A stretch of DNA of 64,000 nt from Streptomyces albireticuli. Lineage in GTDB: Bacteria; Actinomycetota; Actinomycetes; Streptomycetales; Streptomycetaceae. The notes below the pieces were generated by a model. The model had not been told where the DNA came from, did no database searches, and was given only the letters and a program-made list of their open reading frames with translations. How positions within the stretch are numbered: position 1 is the stretch's first letter; every line of letters begins with the position of its first letter. The stretch spans positions 124,001 to 188,000 of the forward strand of contig NZ_JAJQQS010000009.1 of NCBI RefSeq assembly GCF_021228125.1, written 5' to 3'. The translations under genes and the position numbers were made by a program. Below, piece by piece: positions 52,514 to 62,945 of the stretch.

Positions 52514-52655
52514 GCGTCCATGCTCGTGGCGCACGGACGCATGTATGACGAAAAACGAATCGATTCAATAGTTCGAGGGAAAGTGGTGCCTTTCACCCCC
52601 AATCGCACGCGTCCCGTGCTGCCGCACGTACAGGAAAACCGGTGGCGACCGCCCG

Positions 52656-52661
52656 TAGTCT
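52656..52661 (+). promoter_or_regulatory. Leaderless -10 of the sensor kinase gene (TAGTCT)
   Basis: TAGTCT ends 7 nt before ATG 52669, and no ribosome site is present. This fits a leaderless mRNA. Confidence 0.65.
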
Positions 52662-52668
52662 GGGTGGT

Positions 52669-54039
52669 ATGACCACAACGGGGGCAATCGCGGAAGTGGG
52701 CGCGCGGGGCGCGCCCGAAGGGCCGTGGTGGTGGGCGCGGCGGCGGAGTCTGGTGCTGGATGTCGTGCTGGGACTGCTGTCGGCGTTGGAGTGCGCGGCC
52801 GAGGGGGTCGGGTTCGCGCATCAGGTCGGGGCGCCGGGGGCGCTGGGGCTGGTGCTGGGGGTGCCGATCGGGGCGTCGCTGGTGCTGCGGAGGCGGTGGC
52901 CGATAGCCGTCGTGCTGGTGGCGATCGCGATCACGCCGGCCGAGATGGGGCTGCTGCTGGGGATCGTGGGGCTGTACACGCTGGCCGCGTCCGATGTGCC
53001 GCGGCGGCTGACGGTGGTGCTGGCGGGGGCGTCCGTCGTGGGGACGTTCATCGTGGTGTTCGTCCGGTTCGACCAGGATCTGGCGGAGGACGGTTACCGG
53101 CCCGGCACCTGGCTGGTGACGTTCTTCGCCGTGCTGATGTCGCTGGGCGTGTCCGCTCCGCCGGTGCTGACGGGTCTGTACGTGGGGGCGCGGCGCCGGC
53201 TCGTGGAGAGTCTGCGGGAGCGGGCGGACGGGCTGGAGCGGGAGCTGTCGCTGCTGGCGGAGCGGGCCGAGGAGCGGGCCGTCTGGGCGCGGAACGAGGA
53301 GCGGACCCGGATCGCGCGGGAGATGCACGACGTGGTGGCGCACCGGGTGTCGCTGATGGTCGTGCACGCGGCGGCGCTCCAGGCGGTGGCGCTGAAGGAT
53401 CCGGAGAAGGCGTCGAAGAACGCGGGGCTGGTCGGGGACATGGGGCGGCAGGCGCTGACGGAGCTGCGCGAGATGCTCGGTGTGCTGCGGACGTCCTCCG
53501 GCGAGGCGCTGGTGGGTCCGTCGGCCGCGGCGGGTCCGCGGCGGTTGGCGGAGGTGGCGGCCGCGGCGTCGGCGCGGGTGTCGGTGGCCGGTGCCGGTGG
53601 GGTGCCGGTGGGTGATGACGGCCGGATGGGTGACGGTCCGTGCCTGGACGGTCTGGAGGACCTGGTCGGGCAGTCGCGTGCGGCGGGGATGGTCGTCGAG
53701 CTGTGTGTGGAGGGTGAGGAGCGGCGGTACGGGGCGCGGGTGGAGCGGACCGCGTACCGGGTGGTGCAGGAGGCGCTGACGAACGTGCACAAGCACGCGC
53801 CGGGCGCGAAGGCGATAGTCCGGCTGGCGCACCGTGAGGGTGAGGTGGCGCTTCAGGTGGAGAACGGCCCGTCGGAAGGCGGGGCGGCGGACGCCGGGTT
53901 GCCGAGTGGTGGCAACGGTCTGGTGGGGATGCGGGAGCGGGTCTCGGCGCTGGGCGGGGTCTTTGTGTCGGGGGCCACGGACGCGGGGGGCTTCCGGGTC
54001 TCGGCGGTGATTCCCGAGGGTGGTGGCGTGCGCGCCTGA
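52669..54039 (+). CDS. NarL-type (HisKA_3) sensor histidine kinase, orphan
   Basis: This is a 456-residue membrane protein. Five or six hydrophobic segments (about 30-175) have almost no extracytoplasmic loops, so sensing is probably in the membrane. A coiled coil leads to the dimerisation domain with phospho-acceptor H220 in REMHDVVAHRVSLM. The HATPase domain has VVQEALTNVHKHAPGAKA (N-box) and GNGLVGMRERVSALGG (G-box). Between them (about 285-310) is a variable Val/Gly/Ala stretch. No response-regulator gene is adjacent; the two LuxR-type regulators of this window lie over 11 kb away. Confidence 0.93.
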   Translation: MTTTGAIAEVGARGAPEGPWWWARRRSLVLDVVLGLLSALECAAEGVGFAHQVGAPGALGLVLGVPIGASLVLRRRWPIAVVLVAIAITPAEMGLLLGIVGLYTLAASDVPRRLTVVLAGASVVGTFIVVFVRFDQDLAEDGYRPGTWLVTFFAVLMSLGVSAPPVLTGLYVGARRRLVESLRERADGLERELSLLAERAEERAVWARNEERTRIAREMHDVVAHRVSLMVVHAAALQAVALKDPEKASKNAGLVGDMGRQALTELREMLGVLRTSSGEALVGPSAAAGPRRLAEVAAAASARVSVAGAGGVPVGDDGRMGDGPCLDGLEDLVGQSRAAGMVVELCVEGEERRYGARVERTAYRVVQEALTNVHKHAPGAKAIVRLAHREGEVALQVENGPSEGGAADAGLPSGGNGLVGMRERVSALGGVFVSGATDAGGFRVSAVIPEGGGVRA

Positions 54040-54233: not shown

Positions 54234-54740
54234 CTACGCGCGCGGCCCCGCCGAGAGGCGTGAGGGGCGGATGCCGGTGACGAGGGCGCCGATGGCGCGG
54301 TCGATGTCGGAGCCGAGGTACCAGTCGCCGGTGTGGTCGAGGCTGTAGACGCGGCCGTGGGCGTCGATGGTGAGCAGTGCCTGTCCGTCGGCTTCCTGGC
54401 CGAGGGGGCAGACGTCGGTGCCGAGGGCGCGGCCCAGGTCGGCGACGGTGCGGGCGAGGTGCAGGCCGTGGAGGGGGTCGATCCGGAAGGGGGTCGGGGC
54501 GATGTGCCGGCCGGGTCCGGAGGCGGCGATGTGGAGGCCGCCGAACTCGGCCCACGCCTCGACGGCGGCGGGGAAGACGGTGTGCCGGTGGCCGGCCGGG
54601 GAGGTGTGGGCGCGCAGGGCGTCGGCCCAGTGTTCGGCGGCCTTGATGTCCCAGCGGCCCGGCTGCCAGCCGGCCTCGCGGAGGGCGGCGTCGACGGCGA
54701 CGGGGAAGCGGGTGGCGGCGGTGCGGTCGAAGGCGCGCAT
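54234..54740 (-). CDS. SUKH-3-type immunity protein
   Basis: This is a 168-residue soluble protein. The pattern AATRFPVAVDAALREAGWQPGRWDI near the N-terminus, AAVEAWAEFGGLHI, FRIDPLHG, LGRALGTDVCPLGQEADGQALLTIDAHGRVYSLDHTGDWYLGSDIDRAIGALVTG matches the SUKH-3 branch (SUKH = Syd/US22/Knr4 fold), whose members neutralise polymorphic toxins. It follows the YwqJ-type deaminase gene by 5 bp on the same strand, which is the toxin-then-immunity order. Confidence 0.82.
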   Translation of the reverse strand: MRAFDRTAATRFPVAVDAALREAGWQPGRWDIKAAEHWADALRAHTSPAGHRHTVFPAAVEAWAEFGGLHIAASGPGRHIAPTPFRIDPLHGLHLARTVADLGRALGTDVCPLGQEADGQALLTIDAHGRVYSLDHTGDWYLGSDIDRAIGALVTGIRPSRLSAGPRA

Positions 54741-54745
54741 GCGGG

Positions 54746-55276
54746 TCAGCCCTTGCCGTTGTTCGGGGCGGCGGGGTCGACGGCCCGGACGCCGAAGTGG
54801 GTGAGGAGTGCCGTACAGGAGCGGCAGGGGGGCGCGTAACCGCCGTGGCGCGGGTCGCCGTCCTCGCGGATGTGGCGGGCGGTGAGCTTGGCGTGCTTGA
54901 GGGCGCGCCGGGCCTCGCCGTGGGTGAGGGGTTTGCGGGAGGCGCGTTTGCTGCGGCCGCCTTCGAAGGCGGTGAGGTAGCGGGTGAGGAGGAGCGCCTC
55001 GGGGCAGCGGCCGGTGAAGCGTTCGCGGCGGTCGCTGGTGAGGGTGTCGAGGAAGTCCTGGACGAGGGGGTGGAGCGCGGGGGGTTGTTCCGCCTTGCCG
55101 CCGGTGCAGGTCAGGGTCTCGCCGCGGACGGAGAGCGCGGCGGCGACGGCGGGCAGGATGCCGTCGCGGCGGTGGAGCAGGGCGGGTGGACGGTCGGCGT
55201 CCTCGGTGGCGCTCCAGCTGAGCCGGGGGTCGCCGGGTGAGGTGCCGTCCGTCTGGCGGTCCTGTGTCGTGTGCAT
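54746..55276 (-). CDS. YwqJ-type nucleic-acid deaminase-like protein
   Basis: This is a 176-residue protein with both halves of a deaminase zinc site: C91-P-E93 (RCPEALLLTRYL) and P150-C151-R-S-C154 (APPCRSCTALLTHFGV). This is the pattern of the YwqJ family of toxin deaminases. A leader of about 25 polar residues is not a signal peptide. There is no large delivery domain, so it is either an intracellular enzyme or a toxin tip on its own. ATG 55276 has GGGAGGGAAG on the minus strand. The SUKH-3 gene follows 5 bp later. The substrate (nucleotide, RNA or DNA) is unknown. Confidence 0.78.
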   Translation of the reverse strand: MHTTQDRQTDGTSPGDPRLSWSATEDADRPPALLHRRDGILPAVAAALSVRGETLTCTGGKAEQPPALHPLVQDFLDTLTSDRRERFTGRCPEALLLTRYLTAFEGGRSKRASRKPLTHGEARRALKHAKLTARHIREDGDPRHGGYAPPCRSCTALLTHFGVRAVDPAAPNNGKG

Positions 55277-55651: not shown

Positions 55652-56629
55652 ATGACGACAGGTCGGCTCGGGCAGCAGGCCGCGCCACCGAACACGGCCT
55701 ATGCCGGGCAGGTCGTGCACTTCCCGGATCCGGTGAGGGCCGGCCGCTACCCCAAGGGCGTGCGGGTGGACGACGACGGCTTTCCGGACTTCTCGCCCTA
55801 CGCGCGGGCCGCGGCGGAGATCGCCGAGCCGCCGGAGGGCTTCGGTGTCGACGAGCTGCGGCTGACCGACTACGTGTCGGCGAACGCGGCCCTGCACGCG
55901 GAGGGCCACGAGCTGTGGGCGAGCATGCCGCTGGTGGCGACGCCGCACGGCTGGACCTGGCACCACGTGGCGGGCACGCGCCGGCTGGAGCTGGTCCCGG
56001 CCGAGGTGAAGGCGCTGCTGCGGCACCACGGCGGGCTGGCGACGGCCGCCGTGGACCAGGACAAGCGCGGCACCCGGCCGCTCCAGGAGACCCGGCCGGT
56101 GCACTTCGCGCTGCCGCACCGGGACCTGGCGGTGACGGAGGAGCAGGTGCAGGGCGTCGAGGAGGACCTCGGCTACCGGCTGCCGGGCGCCTACCGCGCG
56201 TTCCTGAAGGCCGCGGGCGGCTGCGCCCCGGTGGGCGCGGCGCTGGACGCCGAGCTGGGCCTGCTGGTGGACCAGCCGTTCTTCACGGTGCGGGACGAGG
56301 CGGCGGTCAACGACCTCGTGTACGTGAACAAGTGTCTGCGTGACCACTTCACCAAGGACTATCTGGGCGTGGCCTTCGTGCAGGGCGGCGTCCTCGCGGT
56401 GAAGGTGAAGGGCGAGGCGATCGGTTCGGTGTGGTTCTGCCCGTACGACGACGCCCGGGACCGGGACGGATGGACGGTGCACGAGCGGGTGGAGCGGCTG
56501 TTGCTGCCGTGCGGTGAGGACTTCGACGCGTTTCTGTCGCGGCTGGCCGGTGGGCCGCCGGAGCTGGAGACCGTCGCGAACCTGATGGTCGACGGTGGCT
56601 TCGCGTACGCCGTCCCGGTGGAGGGGTGA
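55652..56629 (+). CDS. WHH-type nuclease-like domain fused to SMI1/KNR4 (SUKH) domain
   Basis: This is a 325-residue protein. Residues about 20-130 resemble the WHH branch of the HNH/EndoVII nucleases: GYPKGVRVDDDGFPDFSPYA-like opening, W103-H104-H105 in GWTWHHVAGTRRLELVP, and HHGG at 125-128. The usual second His after LVPxxV (VH) is Lys120 here. Residues about 160-325 are a SUKH domain (VTEEQVQGVEEDLGYRLPGAYRAFLKAAGG, later DGWTVHERVERLLL). Toxin and immunity folds are thus on one chain. No signal peptide is seen. ATG 55652 follows AGGGGG. The next gene starts 8 bp after its stop, so both are in one operon. Confidence 0.8.
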   Translation: MTTGRLGQQAAPPNTAYAGQVVHFPDPVRAGRYPKGVRVDDDGFPDFSPYARAAAEIAEPPEGFGVDELRLTDYVSANAALHAEGHELWASMPLVATPHGWTWHHVAGTRRLELVPAEVKALLRHHGGLATAAVDQDKRGTRPLQETRPVHFALPHRDLAVTEEQVQGVEEDLGYRLPGAYRAFLKAAGGCAPVGAALDAELGLLVDQPFFTVRDEAAVNDLVYVNKCLRDHFTKDYLGVAFVQGGVLAVKVKGEAIGSVWFCPYDDARDRDGWTVHERVERLLLPCGEDFDAFLSRLAGGPPELETVANLMVDGGFAYAVPVEG

Positions 56630-56636
56630 GCGCGGG

Positions 56637-59372
56637 ATGGTGACGTTCGCGCAGGCGCAGGAGCGCGCGGAGCGGTGGGTCAACGGTGACGTCCCGGCGT
56701 ACCAGCACCGGGAGGTGCGGGTACGGGAGTTCGACCTGGGCTTCGTGGTCTGGGCGGAGGACCGGGAGGACGGGCCGACGTCGGACGGCGGGAACGCCCG
56801 TCTGGTGATCGCCCGGGACAGCGGGGAGACGACGCTGTGGCCGGGGCTTCCGGTCGGTGAGGTGATCCGGCGGTACGAGGAGGAGTACGGAGTCGTGGAG
56901 GAGCCCGCGCCGGTGGCGGACGAACCGCCGAAGCGGCTGGACCTGGAGGCGACGTCGTTCCTGCTGAGTCCGCCTCAGTGGTTGCAGGACGCGGCGGACG
57001 CGATCGGGATCCCCGACCGGCGTCCGGGGGCTTCGGGTACGTCCGGGGCCGCGGCGACTTCGGGTGCTTCCGGGTTTTCCGGAGGTCCCGGGGCTTCCGG
57101 GGCTTCTGGGGCTTCCGGAGCTTCTGGGGCGACGCCCGCCGGGGGTACGGCCGCTCCGGTTCCGGCTCCCGCTCCGGTGCCCTCCGCCGAGGTGCGGGGC
57201 GAGGACGCGTCGGCCGGGCCCACCGGTCCGGCAGGCTCCCTCGCGGTGTCCACCGCTGCCTCGGGCACGGGTGACACGGCCTCGGGGCCGGGCACGGACG
57301 CCTCGGCGACCGGCCCGGTGGCGAGCCCCTGGGCGGACCCGCAGGCCGGTTCCCCGGCCGGTCCGTCCGGTGCGGGGGACGGCACCGCGGAGCCCCTCGG
57401 CGCGGTCTCGTGGGCCGACGCGGACACCAACGTGGCCGACGACGACGCCGATCGTTCCGTGGGCCTGCCCGCCACGGTGCTGGCGCCCGCGCTGTCGGGT
57501 ACGGACGACGAGGACGACGCGCCCGCGCCGAGCGTCCGGCCGGACGCCAAGACGGCGCTGATGGCCGCGGGCAGCGCGCTGCCGCCGACAGCGATCGCGC
57601 CGGCCATCGACGACCCGACGGGCCGCCTCGCCCCGCCCGCTCCGGCCGGTGCTCCCGGTGCCGGTGCCCCGGGCGCACCCGTGCCGCCCGGTGCTCCCGG
57701 TGGCCCCGGGCAGGCCGTCGGCGCCCCGGCCGCGCCCGGCGCTCCGGGAGCCGGGGCTCCGGTTCCGCCCGGTCCGCCCGGCGCCCCGGGCCGCCCCGGC
57801 GCGGGTGCCCCCGTGCCGCCGGGCCCGCCGGGCGCCCCCGGCGCTCCCGGGCAGCCTCCGCGGCCCGCGGGCGGCACCCCGCCGCCCGGTGGCGCGCACT
57901 ACGCCGCCACGATGCTCGCGGACCCCAACGCCCCGGGCGCGCCCGCCGCTCCGGCTCCTCCGACGGGCCCCGCGGCCCCTGGTCAGCCGCCGCAGGCGCC
58001 CGGCGCGCCCGCCGCCCCGAACCCGCCGGCCGGTGGTGTGCACTACGCGGCGACGATGCTCGCGGACCCCGGCGCCCTCGGTGCCCCGGGCGCTCCGGGG
58101 CAGCCGCCGCACGCGCCGGGAGCCCCGCACGCGCCCGGCGCCCCGGGTGCCCCCGGCGCGCCGGGCCGGCCCGCCACGGGCGGTTCCGTGCCTCCGGGCG
58201 CCCCTGGTGGCCCGCAGGGGCCCGGAGGGGTGCACGCCGCGGCGACGATGCTCGCCGGTCCCGGTGCCCCCGGGGCCCCGACGCCGCCGGGCGCACCCGG
58301 CGCGCCGGCGGCTCCGCACGCCCCCGCCGCTCCCGTGCCGCCCGGTGCGCCCGGCGCGTACGGCTATCCGCAAGCCCCCTCCGGGCTGCCGACGGTCGGG
58401 CCCGGCTATATGGCCGTGCTGCGCTACCGCGCCCCCGACGGTTCGGAGCAGCAGCTGATCCGGCGCAGCGCGCCGGGCACGCCGCACCCGGAGTGGCAGA
58501 TCCTGCACGAGCTGCGGGCGATGAACGTACCGCCGCAGCAGGTGCTGGAGCTGCACACGGAGCTGGAGTCGTGCGATCTGCCGGGCGGTTACTGCGCCCG
58601 CATGGTGCGGGAGACCTGGCCGCAGGTGCGGGTGAGCCACACGGCCGCGTACGGGCGGGACCACGCGACCCGGCAGCAGGGCGTGCGGCACCTGGTGGAG
58701 CACCAGGGCGAGCTGCACCAGGTGGCGGACGGCCCGGCCCGTCCGGCGCCGAACCGGGTGCCGCTGCCGCATCCGCAGCAGGTGCGGCAGGTGCCTCCGG
58801 TGGGTCCGGAGGGTGTCGCGCGGGAGCTGGCGGAGTCGTTCGGTCCGCAGGGTGTCTTCCGGTTCGACCAGCGCGCGGTGTCGCGGCAGGGAGTGCCGGA
58901 CGTCGTGGCGCAGACGCTCGTGTGGGCGGGGCTGCCGGTGGACTTCGGTCCGTTCTTCTGGGGTCAGGCGCAGCCCGGCCGGCCGGTGCCGACGCTGGGC
59001 GAGCTGGCGGCGGAGCGCGGTGTGCGGGCGGCCCCGGACGCGGGTTCGTATCTGGTGATGGGCAGCGACTACGGGCGGCAGCTGTGCGTGCAGTACGGCA
59101 CGGCGCACATCGTGGCGGTTCCGATGGAGGCGGGGCCGGACGGCGGGCCGGTGCCACCGCAGTTCGTCAACACGAGCCTTCCTCAGTTCGTACGCTCTTT
59201 GGCTCTGCTCGGGAAGATGTGGCGGTGGCGCTACGGGCTGACGCCGGAGCAGGCCGGGCGCTGGACCGTGGACTTCCAGGAGCAGTTGCTGGCGCTGGAC
59301 CCGGCGGCGCTGTCGTCTCCGGAGAACTGGTGGGCCCTGCTGGTCGAGCAGATGTGGGACGGTCTCTTCTAG
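56637..59372 (+). CDS. YrhB-like + collagen-like linker + deaminase-like + SUKH-4-like multidomain protein
   Basis: This is a 911-residue protein. Residues about 1-90 resemble YrhB-type immunity domains (VVWAEDREDGPTSDGGNARLVIARDSGETTLWPGLP). About 125-590 is low-complexity Gly/Ala/Pro (GAPGAPG, GASGASG), with three HYAATMLADP-type motifs starting near residues 418, 466 and 530. About 595-690 is a nucleic-acid deaminase-like domain (XOO_2897 type by pattern) with H617-P-E619 and C646-x6-C653 (ESCDLPGGYC). About 700-911 resembles SUKH-4 (GSYLVMGSDYGRQLCVQYGT, then NTSLPQFVRSL). No signal peptide is present. GTG 56640 is an alternative start. It is co-transcribed with the WHH/SUKH gene. Confidence 0.78.
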   Translation: MVTFAQAQERAERWVNGDVPAYQHREVRVREFDLGFVVWAEDREDGPTSDGGNARLVIARDSGETTLWPGLPVGEVIRRYEEEYGVVEEPAPVADEPPKRLDLEATSFLLSPPQWLQDAADAIGIPDRRPGASGTSGAAATSGASGFSGGPGASGASGASGASGATPAGGTAAPVPAPAPVPSAEVRGEDASAGPTGPAGSLAVSTAASGTGDTASGPGTDASATGPVASPWADPQAGSPAGPSGAGDGTAEPLGAVSWADADTNVADDDADRSVGLPATVLAPALSGTDDEDDAPAPSVRPDAKTALMAAGSALPPTAIAPAIDDPTGRLAPPAPAGAPGAGAPGAPVPPGAPGGPGQAVGAPAAPGAPGAGAPVPPGPPGAPGRPGAGAPVPPGPPGAPGAPGQPPRPAGGTPPPGGAHYAATMLADPNAPGAPAAPAPPTGPAAPGQPPQAPGAPAAPNPPAGGVHYAATMLADPGALGAPGAPGQPPHAPGAPHAPGAPGAPGAPGRPATGGSVPPGAPGGPQGPGGVHAAATMLAGPGAPGAPTPPGAPGAPAAPHAPAAPVPPGAPGAYGYPQAPSGLPTVGPGYMAVLRYRAPDGSEQQLIRRSAPGTPHPEWQILHELRAMNVPPQQVLELHTELESCDLPGGYCARMVRETWPQVRVSHTAAYGRDHATRQQGVRHLVEHQGELHQVADGPARPAPNRVPLPHPQQVRQVPPVGPEGVARELAESFGPQGVFRFDQRAVSRQGVPDVVAQTLVWAGLPVDFGPFFWGQAQPGRPVPTLGELAAERGVRAAPDAGSYLVMGSDYGRQLCVQYGTAHIVAVPMEAGPDGGPVPPQFVNTSLPQFVRSLALLGKMWRWRYGLTPEQAGRWTVDFQEQLLALDPAALSSPENWWALLVEQMWDGLF
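57640..58370 (+). repeat. Collagen-like GAP/GPP codon repeats
   Basis: Within the multidomain protein the DNA is a long run of GGC-GCN-CCN codons encoding Gly-Ala-Pro and Gly-Pro-Pro triplets. The AATML peptide motif recurs three times (57888-57926, 58032-58070, 58224-58262). The tract is prone to replication slippage, so its length may vary among strains. Confidence 0.85.
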
Positions 59373-59569: not shown

Positions 59570-60475
59570 ATGAGTGCATCGGTATCTCCTGACGGTTTCT
59601 CCGTGGTACGGGGCCGTGGTTACCGTCCTGATCAGGTGGAGCGCGCCCTCGCCGAGCACGCGCGCCGACGGGACGACGCGTGGGAGCGCGCCGCCCGGCT
59701 GACCGTGCTGGCGCGTGAGATGGAGGACGAGGTCGCGCGCCTCGCGCAGGTCGTGGCCCAGCTCCCGCCGCAGACCTACGAGCAGCTCGGGCACCGGGCC
59801 CAGGGCCTGCTGTTCACGGCGCAGGCCGAGGCGGCGGGGCTGCGGGAGCGCGCGGAGGCGGCGTCCGTCGAGCTGATGGACGCGGCGGAGGGCCACGCGC
59901 GCGCGGTGCGGGACGCCGCGCACGAGCACGCGGTGGCCGTGCGCGCGGAGGCGGAGGAGTGGTCGCGCCGGGCCCTGGAGGCGGCCGAGGCCGTCGCCGA
60001 CGACGTGGGCGCCGTGGCGCGCCGTGAGGTGAAGGAGCGCCGCGAGGAGGCCCTCGCGGCGCTGAAGGAGATGCGGCAGCGCACGGCGGCCGTCCTCGCG
60101 GACCAGGAGAAGGGCCACGCGGAGCGCTGGGAGACGGCGGGCCGCGAGATCGCCGAGCGCGAGGCGGCGCTGGACGTGCGGATCGCCGCGATGGAGGAGT
60201 ACGCGCGGAACGCGCTGGCCGAGGCGCAGCGGCGCTACGCGGAGGCCGAGGAGGCCGCGCGGCACGGCCAGGAGGACGCGGAGGCGCAGGCCGCGGCGCT
60301 GATCTCGCACGCGCGGGTGCGGGAGGAGCGGGTGGCCCGGGACACGGAGCGGGTGCTCCGGGAGCACGACGAGCGGCGGGAGGAGCTGCGGGCGCACATG
60401 GCGCACGTGCGGCACAGCCTCGCGGCGCTGACGGGGAAGCCGGTCGCGGAGGACCTGGGCGCGGGGGAGCTGTGA
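59570..60475 (+). CDS. DivIVA-like coiled-coil protein (often misnamed cellulose-binding)
   Basis: This is a 301-residue protein. The first 45 residues, with FSVVRGRGYRPDQVERAL, match the short membrane-binding start of DivIVA-like actinobacterial proteins. Residues about 50-280 are an almost continuous Ala/Glu/Arg coiled coil with heptad pattern, no TM and no Cys. Such proteins organise polar growth or cytoskeletal assemblies in Streptomyces. ATG 59570 has GGGG about 15 nt upstream and AGG adjacent, so initiation signals are weak. Confidence 0.8.
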   Translation: MSASVSPDGFSVVRGRGYRPDQVERALAEHARRRDDAWERAARLTVLAREMEDEVARLAQVVAQLPPQTYEQLGHRAQGLLFTAQAEAAGLRERAEAASVELMDAAEGHARAVRDAAHEHAVAVRAEAEEWSRRALEAAEAVADDVGAVARREVKERREEALAALKEMRQRTAAVLADQEKGHAERWETAGREIAEREAALDVRIAAMEEYARNALAEAQRRYAEAEEAARHGQEDAEAQAAALISHARVREERVARDTERVLREHDERREELRAHMAHVRHSLAALTGKPVAEDLGAGEL

Positions 60476-60603: not shown

Positions 60604-62472
60604 CTAGGACGCGGCGCCCGCCTTCTTCGCCGGTGTGCCCGACGGGGCCGACTGGGTCGGGGCCGGCGCGGACGGCGTACCGCCCGCCTTACCGTCCTTC
60701 TCCGGCTCCTTCTCCGTTTCCTGCTCGACGTTCAGGTGGACCACCAGGACCGTTCCGTCGGGCGTCGTCACCTTTAGCGCGTACGCCCCCGTGTTCTTGT
60801 CCGTGAACAGCTCGGGCAGGAGAAGCCGCCCGTCCTTGCCGGTCCGGCCGAGTTCGAGCGTGCGGGTGGGCTTCCCCCGGTCGTCCTTGAAGTACGGGCC
60901 CGAGGTCACCTCCGTCTTGCCGTCGGAGGTGGTCACCGTGGCGGTCAGGCGCAGGTGGTCGACGGCCGTGCCGTCCTTCTTGAGGGCGACGACCGTCAGG
61001 CGCTTGGCGAAGGAGCCGTTCGGGGTGGCCCTGAACTTCTCGTTGCCGACCTGGGTGAGGGTGTCGGCGTGCGGGGTCACGACCGTGGCGTAGAAGTCGA
61101 CGGCCTTGACGCCCCGGACGTCGGTCGTGGCCCGCACGGTGAACGGGCCGGACCGGTCGCCCGCCGTGATCTGCCGTGCGGAGGCGACGCCGTCCTTGCC
61201 CGTGGGGACCGTGACCTTGATGACCTTGGGGCCGTTCGGGAAGTGGGCGTCGGTGTCGCCGATGATCTCGAAGGTCACCTGGGCGCCGGCGACCGGCTTG
61301 CCGGTGCGGTCCGTGGCGCGCACGCCGGCCTTCTCGTTGAAGACCGCGCCCTCGGTGGTCTGCCACCTCTCGGCGACTTCGTGGCGGTCGAGACGGGCGA
61401 CGGGCGCCGGCTTCTCCGGCTTGGGCTTCTCCGGCGTCGGCTTCTCCGGGGCCGGCTTCTCCGGCTTGGGCTTTTCCGGCGTGGGCTTCTGCGGACCCGG
61501 CTTCTGCGGACCCGGCTTCTGCGGACCCGGCTTCTGCGGCGCGGGCTTGGCCGGGCCCGTGGACCCGCCGGTGGAGCCGCCCGGGGTGTTCCCCGGCTTC
61601 CGGTTCGGCGGGGTCGGCGTGGGGCGGCTGCCCGGGGCGCTGCCGGAGGGCGCGGGGCTCTGCGAGCCGCTGCCACCGGGCAGGCTCGGCAGCTCGGCGA
61701 CATCGCCGGACTGGTACTTCCGCATCCAGGCGAGGACGGCGGTGACGTACTCGCGGGAGGGGTTGTAGCGCAGGATGGCCTTGTCCAGGTCCTGCGGCTT
61801 GTTCATGTCCCGGCCCTCGGCGCAGAGGTAGCGCGCGGTGCCGAGGGCGGCGTCGTAGATGTTGTTGGGGTCCTTGACCCCGTCGCCGTTGCCGTCGGAG
61901 GCGAAGCTCTCCCAGGTGGACGGGATGAACTGGGTGGGGCCGACGGCCCTGTCGTACTCGGCGTCGTCGTCGTAGCGGCCGCCGTCGGTGTCCCGGACCG
62001 TGGCGAACTGCCCGCCCGTCAGCCGGGGGCCGAGGATCTTCCGGTCGCTGCGCCCGTCGGGCAGCAGCTGTCTGCCCTCCATCGTGCCGTGGTGCGACTC
62101 GACCTTGCCGATGCCGGCGATGAGCTCCCAGGGGATGTGGCAGTCCGGCCGGTCGGTCCGCATGGCCTGGGCCGCCTTCCGGTAGGCGTCCAGGGCCGTC
62201 GCGGGGATGCCCGTGGCGGCGTCGCCCCCGTCGACCCGCTGGTCCGGCGGGGGCAGCGGGCCCGGGGAGCGGGGCTTGAGGTCCGGCAGCGTGAGGTTCG
62301 GCGTGCCGTGCGGCAGGCCCTGGGGGTTGTCGGGGCCGGGCTTGGTGTCGTCGGCGTCGGCGATGTTGTGCGGGGGGCTGACGCCGACGGCGGCGGTGAG
62401 GCTGGCGACGAGCAGGGCTGTGCACAGGCCCTGCCGGGAAACGCTGGCAGCGCGGGTACGGAGTATCTTCAC
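60604..62472 (-). CDS. Secreted lytic murein transglycosylase (MltB-like) with PEKP linker and Ig-like domains
   Basis: This is a 622-residue exported protein. A signal peptide (about 1-38: basic start, LCTALLVASLTAAVGV) is followed by an MltB/GH103-like domain (about 85-265), with catalytic Glu E125 in AGIGKVESHHGT and RAVGPTQFIPSTWESFASDGNGDGVKDPNNIYDAALGTARYLC. A linker of repeated KPxPQ/EKP units (about 300-370) leads to two Ig-like bacterial domains (about 385-600) and a Pro/Ala/Ser tail. It cuts glycan strands to 1,6-anhydro ends. GTG 62472 has GGAGGAAG upstream. The linker repeats suggest attachment across the wall. Confidence 0.92.
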   Translation of the reverse strand: MKILRTRAASVSRQGLCTALLVASLTAAVGVSPPHNIADADDTKPGPDNPQGLPHGTPNLTLPDLKPRSPGPLPPPDQRVDGGDAATGIPATALDAYRKAAQAMRTDRPDCHIPWELIAGIGKVESHHGTMEGRQLLPDGRSDRKILGPRLTGGQFATVRDTDGGRYDDDAEYDRAVGPTQFIPSTWESFASDGNGDGVKDPNNIYDAALGTARYLCAEGRDMNKPQDLDKAILRYNPSREYVTAVLAWMRKYQSGDVAELPSLPGGSGSQSPAPSGSAPGSRPTPTPPNRKPGNTPGGSTGGSTGPAKPAPQKPGPQKPGPQKPGPQKPTPEKPKPEKPAPEKPTPEKPKPEKPAPVARLDRHEVAERWQTTEGAVFNEKAGVRATDRTGKPVAGAQVTFEIIGDTDAHFPNGPKVIKVTVPTGKDGVASARQITAGDRSGPFTVRATTDVRGVKAVDFYATVVTPHADTLTQVGNEKFRATPNGSFAKRLTVVALKKDGTAVDHLRLTATVTTSDGKTEVTSGPYFKDDRGKPTRTLELGRTGKDGRLLLPELFTDKNTGAYALKVTTPDGTVLVVHLNVEQETEKEPEKDGKAGGTPSAPAPTQSAPSGTPAKKAGAAS

Positions 62473-62945
62473 AGGCTGCTTCCTCCGGAGACCGTCGGCC
62501 GGTGCGAAGGGGGTCGCACGGTGCCCCCCTCGGCCATGAACCCGAACACTAATTCTCTCCGGCCCCAATTGTCTTGTCCGGGGAACGGCTTCACGCATTC
62601 TTCGCTCTTCGTTCCCCGCGCGGGCGCCGTCCGTGGGGGCGCGGCGCGGGCGACGGGGCGCGCGGTGGTGCGTCCGGCGCGGTCCCGGGGCGGGGCGCGG
62701 GCAACGCCACGTCCCCTAGGGGTCGTTCCCCGCAATCTCCTCCGCGCGGCTCGTCCCGGAGGAGGAGAAGGGTTCCCGGGACGCTCCTTAGCCTTCTTAC
62801 GGACGGCCTGAGCGCGGGGGTGGGGTTAGCACCACCCCACATACACGGATGAGCACCATCGCGGCCGGTACCCGCATTCCCGCAGGCTGAGCACATGGCC
62901 CGGTGGCACGTACGCACCGGACGGAACAGGTAAGAGGAGACTCAC
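62473..62945. other. 473-bp divergent intergenic region
   Basis: The region separates the transglycosylase from the ABC ATPase. It contains a less G+C-rich segment at 62545-62580 (ACACTAATTCTCTCC..CCCAATTGTCTTG) that probably holds the leftward promoter, and GGAAC (62581-62585), possibly a -35 of SigE-type. TCTCCTCC (62741-62748) pairs with GGAGGAGGAGA (62757-62767). No gene is seen, and I recognise no riboswitch. Confidence 0.5.

What the first reader, a model, noticed from the sequence alone, without database searches (positions are those of the whole stretch)
56637..59372. 911-residue deaminase/SUKH-4-like protein with collagen-like linker and three AATML motifs
About 450 residues of Gly-Ala-Pro repeats separate an N-terminal YrhB-like part from a deaminase-like part with an intact zinc set (H617/E619, C646, C653). 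The motif (H/A)YAATMLADP is repeated three times in the linker, each with a Thr in the same context, which looks like a repeated phosphorylation or FHA-docking site.
Basis: partly seen in the sequence, partly recalled or inferred. Interest (0 to 1): 0.65.

Follow-up and report, generated by a model that had tools for sequence, protein, structure and literature searches.

The report
Core Streptomyces deaminase with threonine-tagged linker
Nearly all genomes examined from the Streptomyces family carry a protein that joins an enzyme of the bacterial DNA/RNA-altering toxin type to its likely antidote through a long floppy linker, in which short threonine-centred tags are what stays conserved, hinting that an old weapon became a switchable house protein.

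Summary
ORF 56637-59372 encodes 911 aa: an XOO_2897-type deaminase (588-689) and SUKH-4 (728-905), joined to a small N-terminal domain by about 490 residues predicted to be disordered. AATML occurs three times (T425, T473, T537). In orthologues the zinc set H617/E619/C646/C653 is invariant (81 of 81) and AATML is in 54 of 60 full-length linkers (129 copies; shuffles give 0.015), although linkers vary from 311 to 979 aa. Against that, four distant fused paralogues have lost most of the zinc set. AATML is one of several Thr-centred tags: in 202 of 202 copies of A-x-?-[MV][LF][AS] the centre is Thr, never Ser. That fits phospho-Thr/FHA docking but does not prove it; no FHA or kinase pattern lies nearby, and reported kinase motifs do not match. 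The gene sits beside two more nucleic-acid toxin/SUKH sets (YwqJ deaminase with SUKH-3; WHH nuclease fused to SUKH-1), present in 58 of 58 loci with enough flank. It is in 240 of 249 sampled family genomes. I read it as a domesticated, cis-restrained toxin-immunity fusion whose linker is a Thr-tagged docking scaffold. "YrhB-like" for the N-terminus is not supported.

The parts
56637..59372 (+). 911-aa protein: N-terminal alpha/beta domain, linker predicted disordered, XOO_2897-like deaminase, SUKH-4
56637..56894 (+).
56934..57023 (+). conserved block RLDLEATSFLLSPPQWLQDAADAIGIPDRR (residues 100-129, Thr106), first Thr tag
   Evidence: EA(T)SFLL: Thr in 73 of 73 copies; alignments
57465..57494 (+). 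second Thr tag, PATVLAPAL here (Thr280); VFAPP forms are common in orthologues
   Evidence: P-x-?-VFAPP 52 of 52 Thr
57543..57605 (+). third and fourth Thr tags, DAKTALM and LPPTAIAPA (Thr306, Thr318)
   Evidence: 59 of 59 and 60 of 60 Thr
57897..57926 (+). HYAATMLADP copy 1 (Thr425)
58041..58070 (+). HYAATMLADP copy 2 (Thr473)
58233..58262 (+). HAAATMLAGP copy 3 (Thr537)
58398..58703 (+). XOO_2897-like deaminase domain (residues 588-689); zinc set H617, E619, C646, C653
   Evidence: PF14440, E 2.8e-38; 81 of 81; cytidine-deaminase-like fold
58818..59351 (+). SUKH-4 immunity domain (residues 728-905)
   Evidence: PF14435, E 1.4e-47
55652..56629 (+). upstream gene, 7-nt gap before the 911-aa gene: WHH nuclease fused to SUKH-1 (SMI1_KNR4)
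   Evidence: present in 58 of 58 loci; WHH motif conserved at 97% or more over 62 loci
54746..55276 (-). divergent gene: YwqJ-like deaminase with CPE..PCxxC
   Evidence: PF14431, E 4.6e-27
54234..54740 (-). SUKH-3 immunity protein, downstream of the YwqJ gene
   Evidence: PF14433, E 1.4e-59; 58 of 58
59570..60475 (+). coiled-coil-like protein with a weak DivIVA-like N-terminus, conserved neighbour; linked to the system only by synteny
   Evidence: (72 of 73 loci)

Best explanation
The protein is a domesticated toxin-immunity fusion of Streptomycetaceae. A deaminase of the XOO_2897 type with an intact zinc set is kept in one chain with a SUKH-4 domain, which most likely restrains it in cis. The long disordered linker works as a multivalent docking scaffold: several Thr-centred short tags ([AP]-x-T or x-[AP]-T followed by [MVQSA]-[LFI]-[AVLM]) are read by a Thr-specific partner, most likely after phosphorylation by a Hanks-type kinase and through an FHA domain. 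Docking would place the enzyme or release it from SUKH-4. Shown here: domain make-up, zinc set, conservation and synteny, strict Thr at the tag centre, predicted disorder of the linker. Inferred: catalytic activity, cis restraint, phosphorylation, FHA partner, nucleic acid as substrate, and what the release is for (response to phage or damage, or controlled breakdown of nucleic acid in dying hyphae).
For: Domains far over the curated cut-offs. Zinc set invariant in 81 of 81 orthologues. Structural match list for 586-677 dominated by cytidine deaminases, with DddA and APOBEC entries below. Gene in 240 of 249 sampled family genomes at E<=1e-60, own genome included (counted from the table), and in 9 of 9 same-genus genomes (own included) of a phylum-wide draw, with 0 of the other 287. 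Fixed surroundings: SUKH-3, YwqJ and WHH-SUKH-1 in the same orientation in 58 of 58 loci, unlike strain-variable polymorphic toxins. Related deaminase and SUKH-4 genes lie side by side as separate genes elsewhere in the family, a likely source of the fusion. Linkers vary from 311 to 979 aa, yet AATML occurs 129 times against 0.015 in shuffles. Thr in 202 of 202 A-x-?-[MV][LF][AS] copies and in all copies of five other tags, in linkers with more Ser than Thr. Codons at the tag vary synonymously. Some distant orthologues at 67-70% identity keep altered forms (YAPTMLARP, HAPTMLAPP, YERTQLA).
Against: No phosphorylation data. No FHA- or kinase-like pattern in 81 stretches. AATMLA does not fit the kinase motifs quoted for M. 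tuberculosis (acidic run, T-X-X/V-phi-P/R-I) or S. coelicolor (pTxE). 6 of 60 linkers lack AATML; five of these have near variants, L070 has none. At 61-63% identity the tags are looser (L134) or not seen in the open frame (L135). Four deaminase-SUKH-4 fusion paralogues have broken zinc sets, so fusion does not by itself mean an active enzyme. AF2 leaves the tags unstructured, so no docking is seen. Many sequences are close relatives, so the counts are not independent events. Activity and cis inhibition are untested.
Confidence: 0.5

Rival explanations
1. The Thr tags are docking peptides that are read unphosphorylated, for example as short strands or helices bound by a partner's groove; the Thr is needed for its shape, not for phosphate.
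For: The flanking residues of AATMLA are nearly as conserved as the Thr (92.9 to 98.7% against 100%); the tags do not match the quoted kinase motifs; no kinase or FHA pattern nearby.
Against: No other residue at the centre in 202 copies; several tag families differ in flanks but share Thr.
Confidence: 0.35
2. A housekeeping enzyme: the deaminase has been recruited for ordinary nucleotide or RNA modification and is no longer a toxin; SUKH-4 and the linker only serve assembly.
For: Present in 240 of 249 sampled family genomes, strongly conserved (78-99% identity in the best 80), near genes with PRPP-synthetase, NTP-transferase/hexapeptide (GlmU-like) and L25 domains that also match in 38-51 of the loci.
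Against: The neighbours are two further toxin-type enzymes each with a SUKH domain, which is hard to explain for a metabolic enzyme; SUKH-4 is kept.
Confidence: 0.25
3. A sponge or decoy: the locus gives immunity against incoming toxins, the toxin-like domains being bait or leftovers.
For: SUKH proteins form loci of pure immunity genes in many bacteria (PMC3482391, passages read). Four fused deaminase-SUKH-4 paralogues (L095, L138, L139, L146) have broken zinc sets, so dead fusions exist.
Against: In the orthologues the catalytic residues are kept: deaminase 81 of 81; YwqJ 59 of 59 for Cys and Glu, 58 of 58 for the Cys pair; WHH motif at 97% or more over 62 loci. PMC3482391 describes polyimmunity loci as free of toxin genes and variable between strains, the opposite of this locus.
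Confidence: 0.12
4. An exported polymorphic toxin whose immunity domain travels with it.
For: Deaminase and SUKH families are classic polymorphic toxin parts (PMC3482391).
Against: No trafficking domain found by Pfam or NCBIfam; N-terminus is predicted as a folded domain; the gene does not vary as such toxins do; immunity fused C-terminally would go out with the toxin. No signal-peptide program was run.
Confidence: 0.07
5. The three AATML copies are a by-product of DNA repeat expansion in a GC-rich tract.
For: Tandem DNA repeats lie in the linker.
Against: Codons differ between copies and species at synonymous positions while residues do not; linker lengths and the sequence between tags vary widely but the tags persist.
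Confidence: 0.03

Closest known systems
XOO_2897-like deaminases (PF14440) with SUKH immunity, of polymorphic toxin systems (PMC3482391)
   Same: Same deaminase family, same class of immunity protein, zinc set intact
   Different: Fused in one chain with SUKH-4 behind a long Thr-tagged linker, no trafficking domain found, fixed locus across a bacterial family rather than strain-variable
SUKH polyimmunity loci (PMC3482391)
   Same: Several SUKH families (SUKH-1, -3, -4) side by side
   Different: Here each SUKH is paired with a toxin-type enzyme with kept catalytic residues, and the locus is constant in the loci compared
GarA, an actinobacterial phospho-Thr/FHA switch (PMC12321487, passages read)
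   Same: [quoted passage not shown] EATSFLL here is loosely similar
   Different: No FHA domain in this protein; multiple tags; phosphorylation not known
DddA double-stranded DNA deaminase toxin (PDB 6u08, 8e5d)
   Same: Deaminase-like fold (Z 5.8 and 5.3, 78 residues, rmsd 3.1 and 3.2)
   Different: Recalled as belonging to a different deaminase family; type VI secretion effector according to the PDB title

Membership tests
XOO_2897-like deaminase (PF14440) | profile match over the curated cut-off | tested here: met
   130.5 bits against 27, residues 588-689, profile 1-101 of 101
XOO_2897-like deaminase (PF14440) | zinc ligands and catalytic Glu (HxE, C..C) in this protein and its orthologues | tested here: met
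   HPE and both Cys in 81 of 81 and in 46 of 46 whole-genome loci over 60% identity with the four positions aligned
XOO_2897-like deaminase (PF14440) | zinc ligands in more distant relatives | tested here: inconclusive
   22 paralogue records at 15 places: set kept at 10 places, broken at 5 (L095, L138, L139, L146, L147/L151), by pairwise tblastn alignment only
Deaminase fold | three-dimensional fold | tested here: met
   AF2 pLDDT 77-89 for 591-640 and 62-71 for 641-670, which holds both Cys; the best VIA rows for 586-677 are cytidine deaminases, Z up to 7.7, 78 aligned, rmsd 3.0. Caution: Z under 8, and Foldseek had no match under E 0.001, its top rows being APOBEC3H at E 0.015-0.05
Deaminase | deamination of a base | not testable with these tools
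   needs an assay
SUKH-4 (PF14435) | profile match over the curated cut-off | tested here: met
   162.6 bits against 25.5, residues 728-905
SUKH-4 (PF14435) | neutralises the partner toxin | not testable with these tools
   needs an assay
Imm35 / YrhB | profile match over the curated cut-off (residues 1-86) | tested here: not met
   no Pfam family at E<=10 for five N-terminal stretches from the window and three loci; PF15567 over the own genome reports one other place at E 0.9 and not this one. That YrhB belongs to Imm35 is recalled
Imm35 / YrhB | fold | tested here: inconclusive
   best VIA rows are a designed cystatin fold and other small alpha/beta folds, Z 5.8 and below
Polymorphic toxin system | N-terminal trafficking or secretion domain | tested here: not met
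   none in Pfam or NCBIfam; no signal-peptide program run
Polymorphic toxin system | toxin tip varies between strains | tested here: not met
   same gene in 240 of 249 sampled family genomes, one per species, same neighbours in 58 of 58 loci; strains within one species were not compared
Polyimmunity locus | immunity genes uninterrupted by toxin genes, variable between strains (PMC3482391) | tested here: not met
   three toxin-type domains present and constant
Phospho-Thr / FHA docking substrate | Thr only, never Ser, at the centre of the site | tested here: met
   202 of 202; 52 of 52, 37 of 37, 73 of 73, 59 of 59 and 60 of 60 for the other tags. That FHA domains prefer pThr over pSer is recalled
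Phospho-Thr / FHA docking substrate | fits reported actinobacterial kinase motifs | tested here: not met
   motifs quoted in PMC6888350
Phospho-Thr / FHA docking substrate | phosphorylated in the cell and bound by an FHA protein | not testable with these tools
   needs phosphoproteomics and a pull-down

The most novel reading that the evidence does not exclude
Streptomycetaceae carry a family-wide, vertically kept nucleic-acid demolition or editing device made of three former toxins (two deaminases and an HNH nuclease), each held by its own SUKH domain. The XOO_2897 deaminase is switched through a multivalent array of phospho-threonine tags in its linker, tying kinase signalling in the multicellular life cycle to controlled alteration of the cell's own or invading DNA/RNA.
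Probability: 0.25. Interest if true: 0.85.

Novelty: new variant of a known kind. Interest (0 to 1): 0.6.

Why it matters
Polymorphic toxins are expected to change fast. Here two toxin-type deaminases and a toxin-type nuclease, with their catalytic residues kept, have become near-fixed genes of a bacterial family together with SUKH partners, two of them in the same chain. If the Thr tags are phospho-docking sites, the protein would link the many Ser/Thr kinases of Streptomyces (47 Ser/Thr/Tyr kinases in S. coelicolor according to PMC6888350) to a nucleic-acid-altering enzyme, and would give a handle on what those kinases control and on how hyphae dismantle nucleic acid or meet phage.

Tried and rejected
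DNA-repeat origin of the motif was set aside on the synonymous codon pattern. Chance was rejected by shuffles. Motif in other proteins: a degenerate DNA search of the own genome found four places, three in this gene and one in a permease-like membrane protein (AATMLS; my judgement from its sequence), with one place for the reversed control, so the fourth is at chance level. A paralogue of the N-terminal part: none in the own genome at E<=1. A plasmid home: 4 weak records, none covering 80% of the query. Known defence or phage families for this protein and four neighbours: none in PADLOC; one weak PHROG of unknown function for the WHH protein. FHA or kinase neighbours: simple recalled patterns only, 0 of 81 stretches; profile searches were made only for window neighbours. 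Solved relatives by sequence: none for the deaminase part at E<=1, eight at E 0.1-1 for the SUKH part, none of them convincing. Fold of the N-terminal domain: Foldseek no match under E 0.001, VIA Z at most 5.8. The SUKH part filled few rows and was modelled at pLDDT 34-75 by blocks of ten, so its fold was hardly tested.

Literature: the two 2011 NAR papers that I recall as treating SUKH and deaminase toxins are not held, so I cannot say that the Streptomyces locus is undescribed. Among the rows listed by searches I saw no paper on this locus or motif, apart from PMC3482391 on the families in general; some of these lists were shorter than the number of papers found. AATMLA and TMLAGP occur in no held paper; ATSFLL occurs in one cancer proteome paper, seen as a listing only and taken as unrelated. 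PMC7159879 on conflict systems of multicellular bacteria has no mention of SUKH or WHH (passages). The S. coelicolor tags SCO3115-SCO3118 were guessed from recalled gene order; no held paper names them in its main text, and SCO3119 is listed as an orphan histidine kinase in PMC9739842. No supplement was read.

Rows dropped: of the 80 loci, 17 end inside the gene at a contig edge and 4 (L006, L024, L051, L072) have an ORF without the N-terminal part, so 59 plus the window were used as full-length linkers. In L006, L024 and L051 the N-terminal part lies upstream in another frame; in L072 it is not found. In some searches only whole-genome loci with the gene on the given strand after tblastn, over 60% identity and with a VGPG anchor were used. 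The best 80 of at least 497 relatives were kept by the tool, so the sample leans to close relatives.
Full report
What was checked. The ORF at 56637-59372 on the + strand encodes 911 residues. Pfam places an XOO_2897-like deaminase at 588-689 and SUKH-4 at 728-905, both far above the curated cut-offs. In the AF2 model of the whole protein, residues 1-80 have pLDDT 73-90 by blocks of ten, 591-640 have 77-89, 641-670 have 62-71, the SUKH part 34-75, and the linker is mostly under 50. The best structural matches of the deaminase part are cytidine deaminases, with Z up to 7.7 over 78 residues, and DddA and APOBEC entries further down.

The motif. AATML occurs three times in the window protein, at T425, T473 and T537. 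In 60 full-length linkers (59 orthologues and the window) of 311 to 979 residues (median 481) it occurs 129 times, against a mean of 0.015 in composition-preserving shuffles. 54 of 60 linkers have at least one copy and 47 have two or more. Of the six without it (L026, L029, L036, L060, L070, L077), five show AATVL, APTML, APTVL or ASTML forms instead and L070 shows none. Among the 126 copies outside the window the codons vary at synonymous positions while the five residues do not, by selection of the pattern, and the flanks do. This points to protein-level constraint in an otherwise free linker.

The same linkers hold further conserved short stretches, each centred on Thr: EATSFLL[ST]PP[QE]WLQ, P-x-T-VFAPPL, [DE]AKT-x-LM, LP-x-T-x-IAPA and YVPTQLVS. 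In a wider set of 83 linkers the freed centre is Thr in 166 of 166, 52 of 52, 37 of 37, 73 of 73, 59 of 59 and 60 of 60 copies of six patterns; a seventh, overlapping the first, gives 169 of 169. A-x-?-[MV][LF][AS] gives 202 of 202. With one position freed at a time in AATMLA, the other positions are 92.9 to 98.7% consensus and Thr is 100%. Ser is more common than Thr in these linkers (6.6% against 4.9%), so the absence of Ser is notable. The 83 linkers include at least three repeats of the same locus and many close relatives, so these are counts of sequences, not of events. Of five more distant linkers that I read by eye, three (L127, L129, L132; 67-70% identity in the C-terminal part) keep tags in changed form, for example YAPTMLARP, HAPTMLAPP and YERTQLA; L134 (63%) has only looser ones and L135 (61%) shows none in its open frame.

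What Thr-only means. A rule of 'Thr, never Ser' is what a phospho-Thr reader such as an FHA domain would impose (recalled knowledge of FHA domains). It is also possible that an unphosphorylated peptide with Thr is bound. The kinase motifs quoted in a review (PMC6888350, passages read) for M. tuberculosis and S. coelicolor do not match AATMLA, no FHA- or kinase-like pattern lies in the 81 stretches searched, and AF2 shows no ordered tag. GarA shows that actinobacteria do use a phosphorylated Thr motif next to an FHA domain as a switch (PMC12321487, passages read). I keep the phospho reading slightly ahead of its rival.

The surroundings change the picture. Seven nucleotides upstream ends a gene for a WHH nuclease fused to SUKH-1. 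Divergently, a YwqJ-like deaminase gene is followed by a SUKH-3 gene. So three toxin-type nucleic-acid enzymes and three SUKH families lie within about 5 kb. In the 58 loci with at least 5 kb to the left, SUKH-3, YwqJ and WHH-SUKH-1 are present in the same orientation in all 58; the coiled-coil gene downstream is in 72 of 73 loci with at least 5 kb to the right. A histidine kinase match is also found in 58 of 58, but in 6 of them on the other strand, so that one is less certain. The YwqJ zinc residues are kept (Cys and Glu of the first motif 59 of 59, the Cys pair 58 of 58), and the WHH motif is conserved at 97% or more over 62 loci.

How widespread. A phylum-wide draw found the C-terminal part in 9 of 296 genomes, which are the 9 of the same genus, own genome included. 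Within the family 244 of 249 sampled genomes matched at E<=1e-10. Four of these (genus g202) are only weak hits (E 1e-16 to 1e-12), in the two genomes looked at again to a paralogous deaminase, so 240 of 249 is my count of orthologues from that table, two of them (G361, G371) with weaker scores. Two of the five genomes without a match are explained by contig ends: in G511 the WHH gene ends 1 kb before the end of a 3.1-kb contig, in G500 it lies at the start of a contig. The three g199 genomes lack both this gene and the WHH gene but keep a YwqJ relative, so in this small sample the WHH and XOO_2897 genes are missing together. Separate neighbouring genes for a related deaminase and SUKH-4 occur elsewhere in the family, a likely ancestral form of the fusion. 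Plasmids hold only four weak relatives.

A result against the simple story. Among 22 paralogue records at 15 places with 31-42% identity, the zinc set is kept at 10 places and broken at 5; four of the broken ones (L095, L138, L139, L146) align over deaminase and SUKH-4 together, like the gene here. Fusions with a dead deaminase therefore exist in the family. The orthologues themselves keep the set in 81 of 81 and 46 of 46, which argues that here the enzyme is in use.

How it most likely works. A former toxin with its antidote in the same chain has become a fixed family trait, probably intracellular since no trafficking domain was found. SUKH-4 would hold the deaminase; the linker, free in length and composition, carries several similar docking tags, so that binding strength can build up with the number of tags occupied; occupancy would place or release the enzyme. 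Shown: parts, conservation, synteny, Thr rule, predicted disorder. Inferred: activity, restraint in cis, phosphorylation, partner, substrate, purpose.

Comparison with known systems. The domains are members of known families, and SUKH with XOO2897, YwqJ and WHH toxins is listed in PMC3482391 (passages read). What differs is near-fixation across a family, fusion, absence of a trafficking domain and the Thr-tagged linker; polyimmunity loci as described there are free of toxin genes and vary between strains, which this locus does not. Whether the 2011 papers on SUKH and deaminase toxins already mention the locus could not be checked. Hence 'new variant of a known kind'.

Noticed in passing
window 57058-58342 (linker DNA) and the loci L001-L080: The GC-rich linker (up to 87% GC in 500-base windows) is a frequent assembly break-point: 17 of 80 loci end inside this gene, and three others (L006, L024, L051) have the N-terminal part in another frame upstream. 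Apparent absences of the gene may be artefacts.
   Followed up: partly
L051 (Streptomyces philanthi, complete genome): Deaminase and SUKH-4 are kept, but the ORF is 564 aa, the N-terminal part is in another frame, AATML is absent from the frame and a short stretch HMAVLRYR is repeated at the start of the deaminase. Decay or sequence error not decided.
   Followed up: partly
L095, L138, L139, L146: Paralogues with deaminase and SUKH-4 together but with a broken zinc set, a possible family of dead-deaminase fusions.
   Followed up: partly
L096/L097 and L147/L151: Separate neighbouring genes for SUKH-4 and an XOO_2897-like deaminase, SUKH-4 first.
   Followed up: partly
59570-60475: Conserved coiled-coil-like protein with a weak DivIVA-like start (TIGR03544 E 0.028, Pfam DivIVA E 0.52), downstream of the gene in 72 of 73 loci.
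   Followed up: partly
60604-62598: Protein with SLT_2 transglycosylase and a weak Big_1 match; found in only 18 of 73 loci with enough flank.
   Followed up: no
52642-54039: Sensor histidine kinase beside the locus, probably the counterpart of SCO3119 (inferred from recalled gene order); a 2026 mBio paper lists SCO3119 as a possible direct AtrA target (passage).
   Followed up: partly
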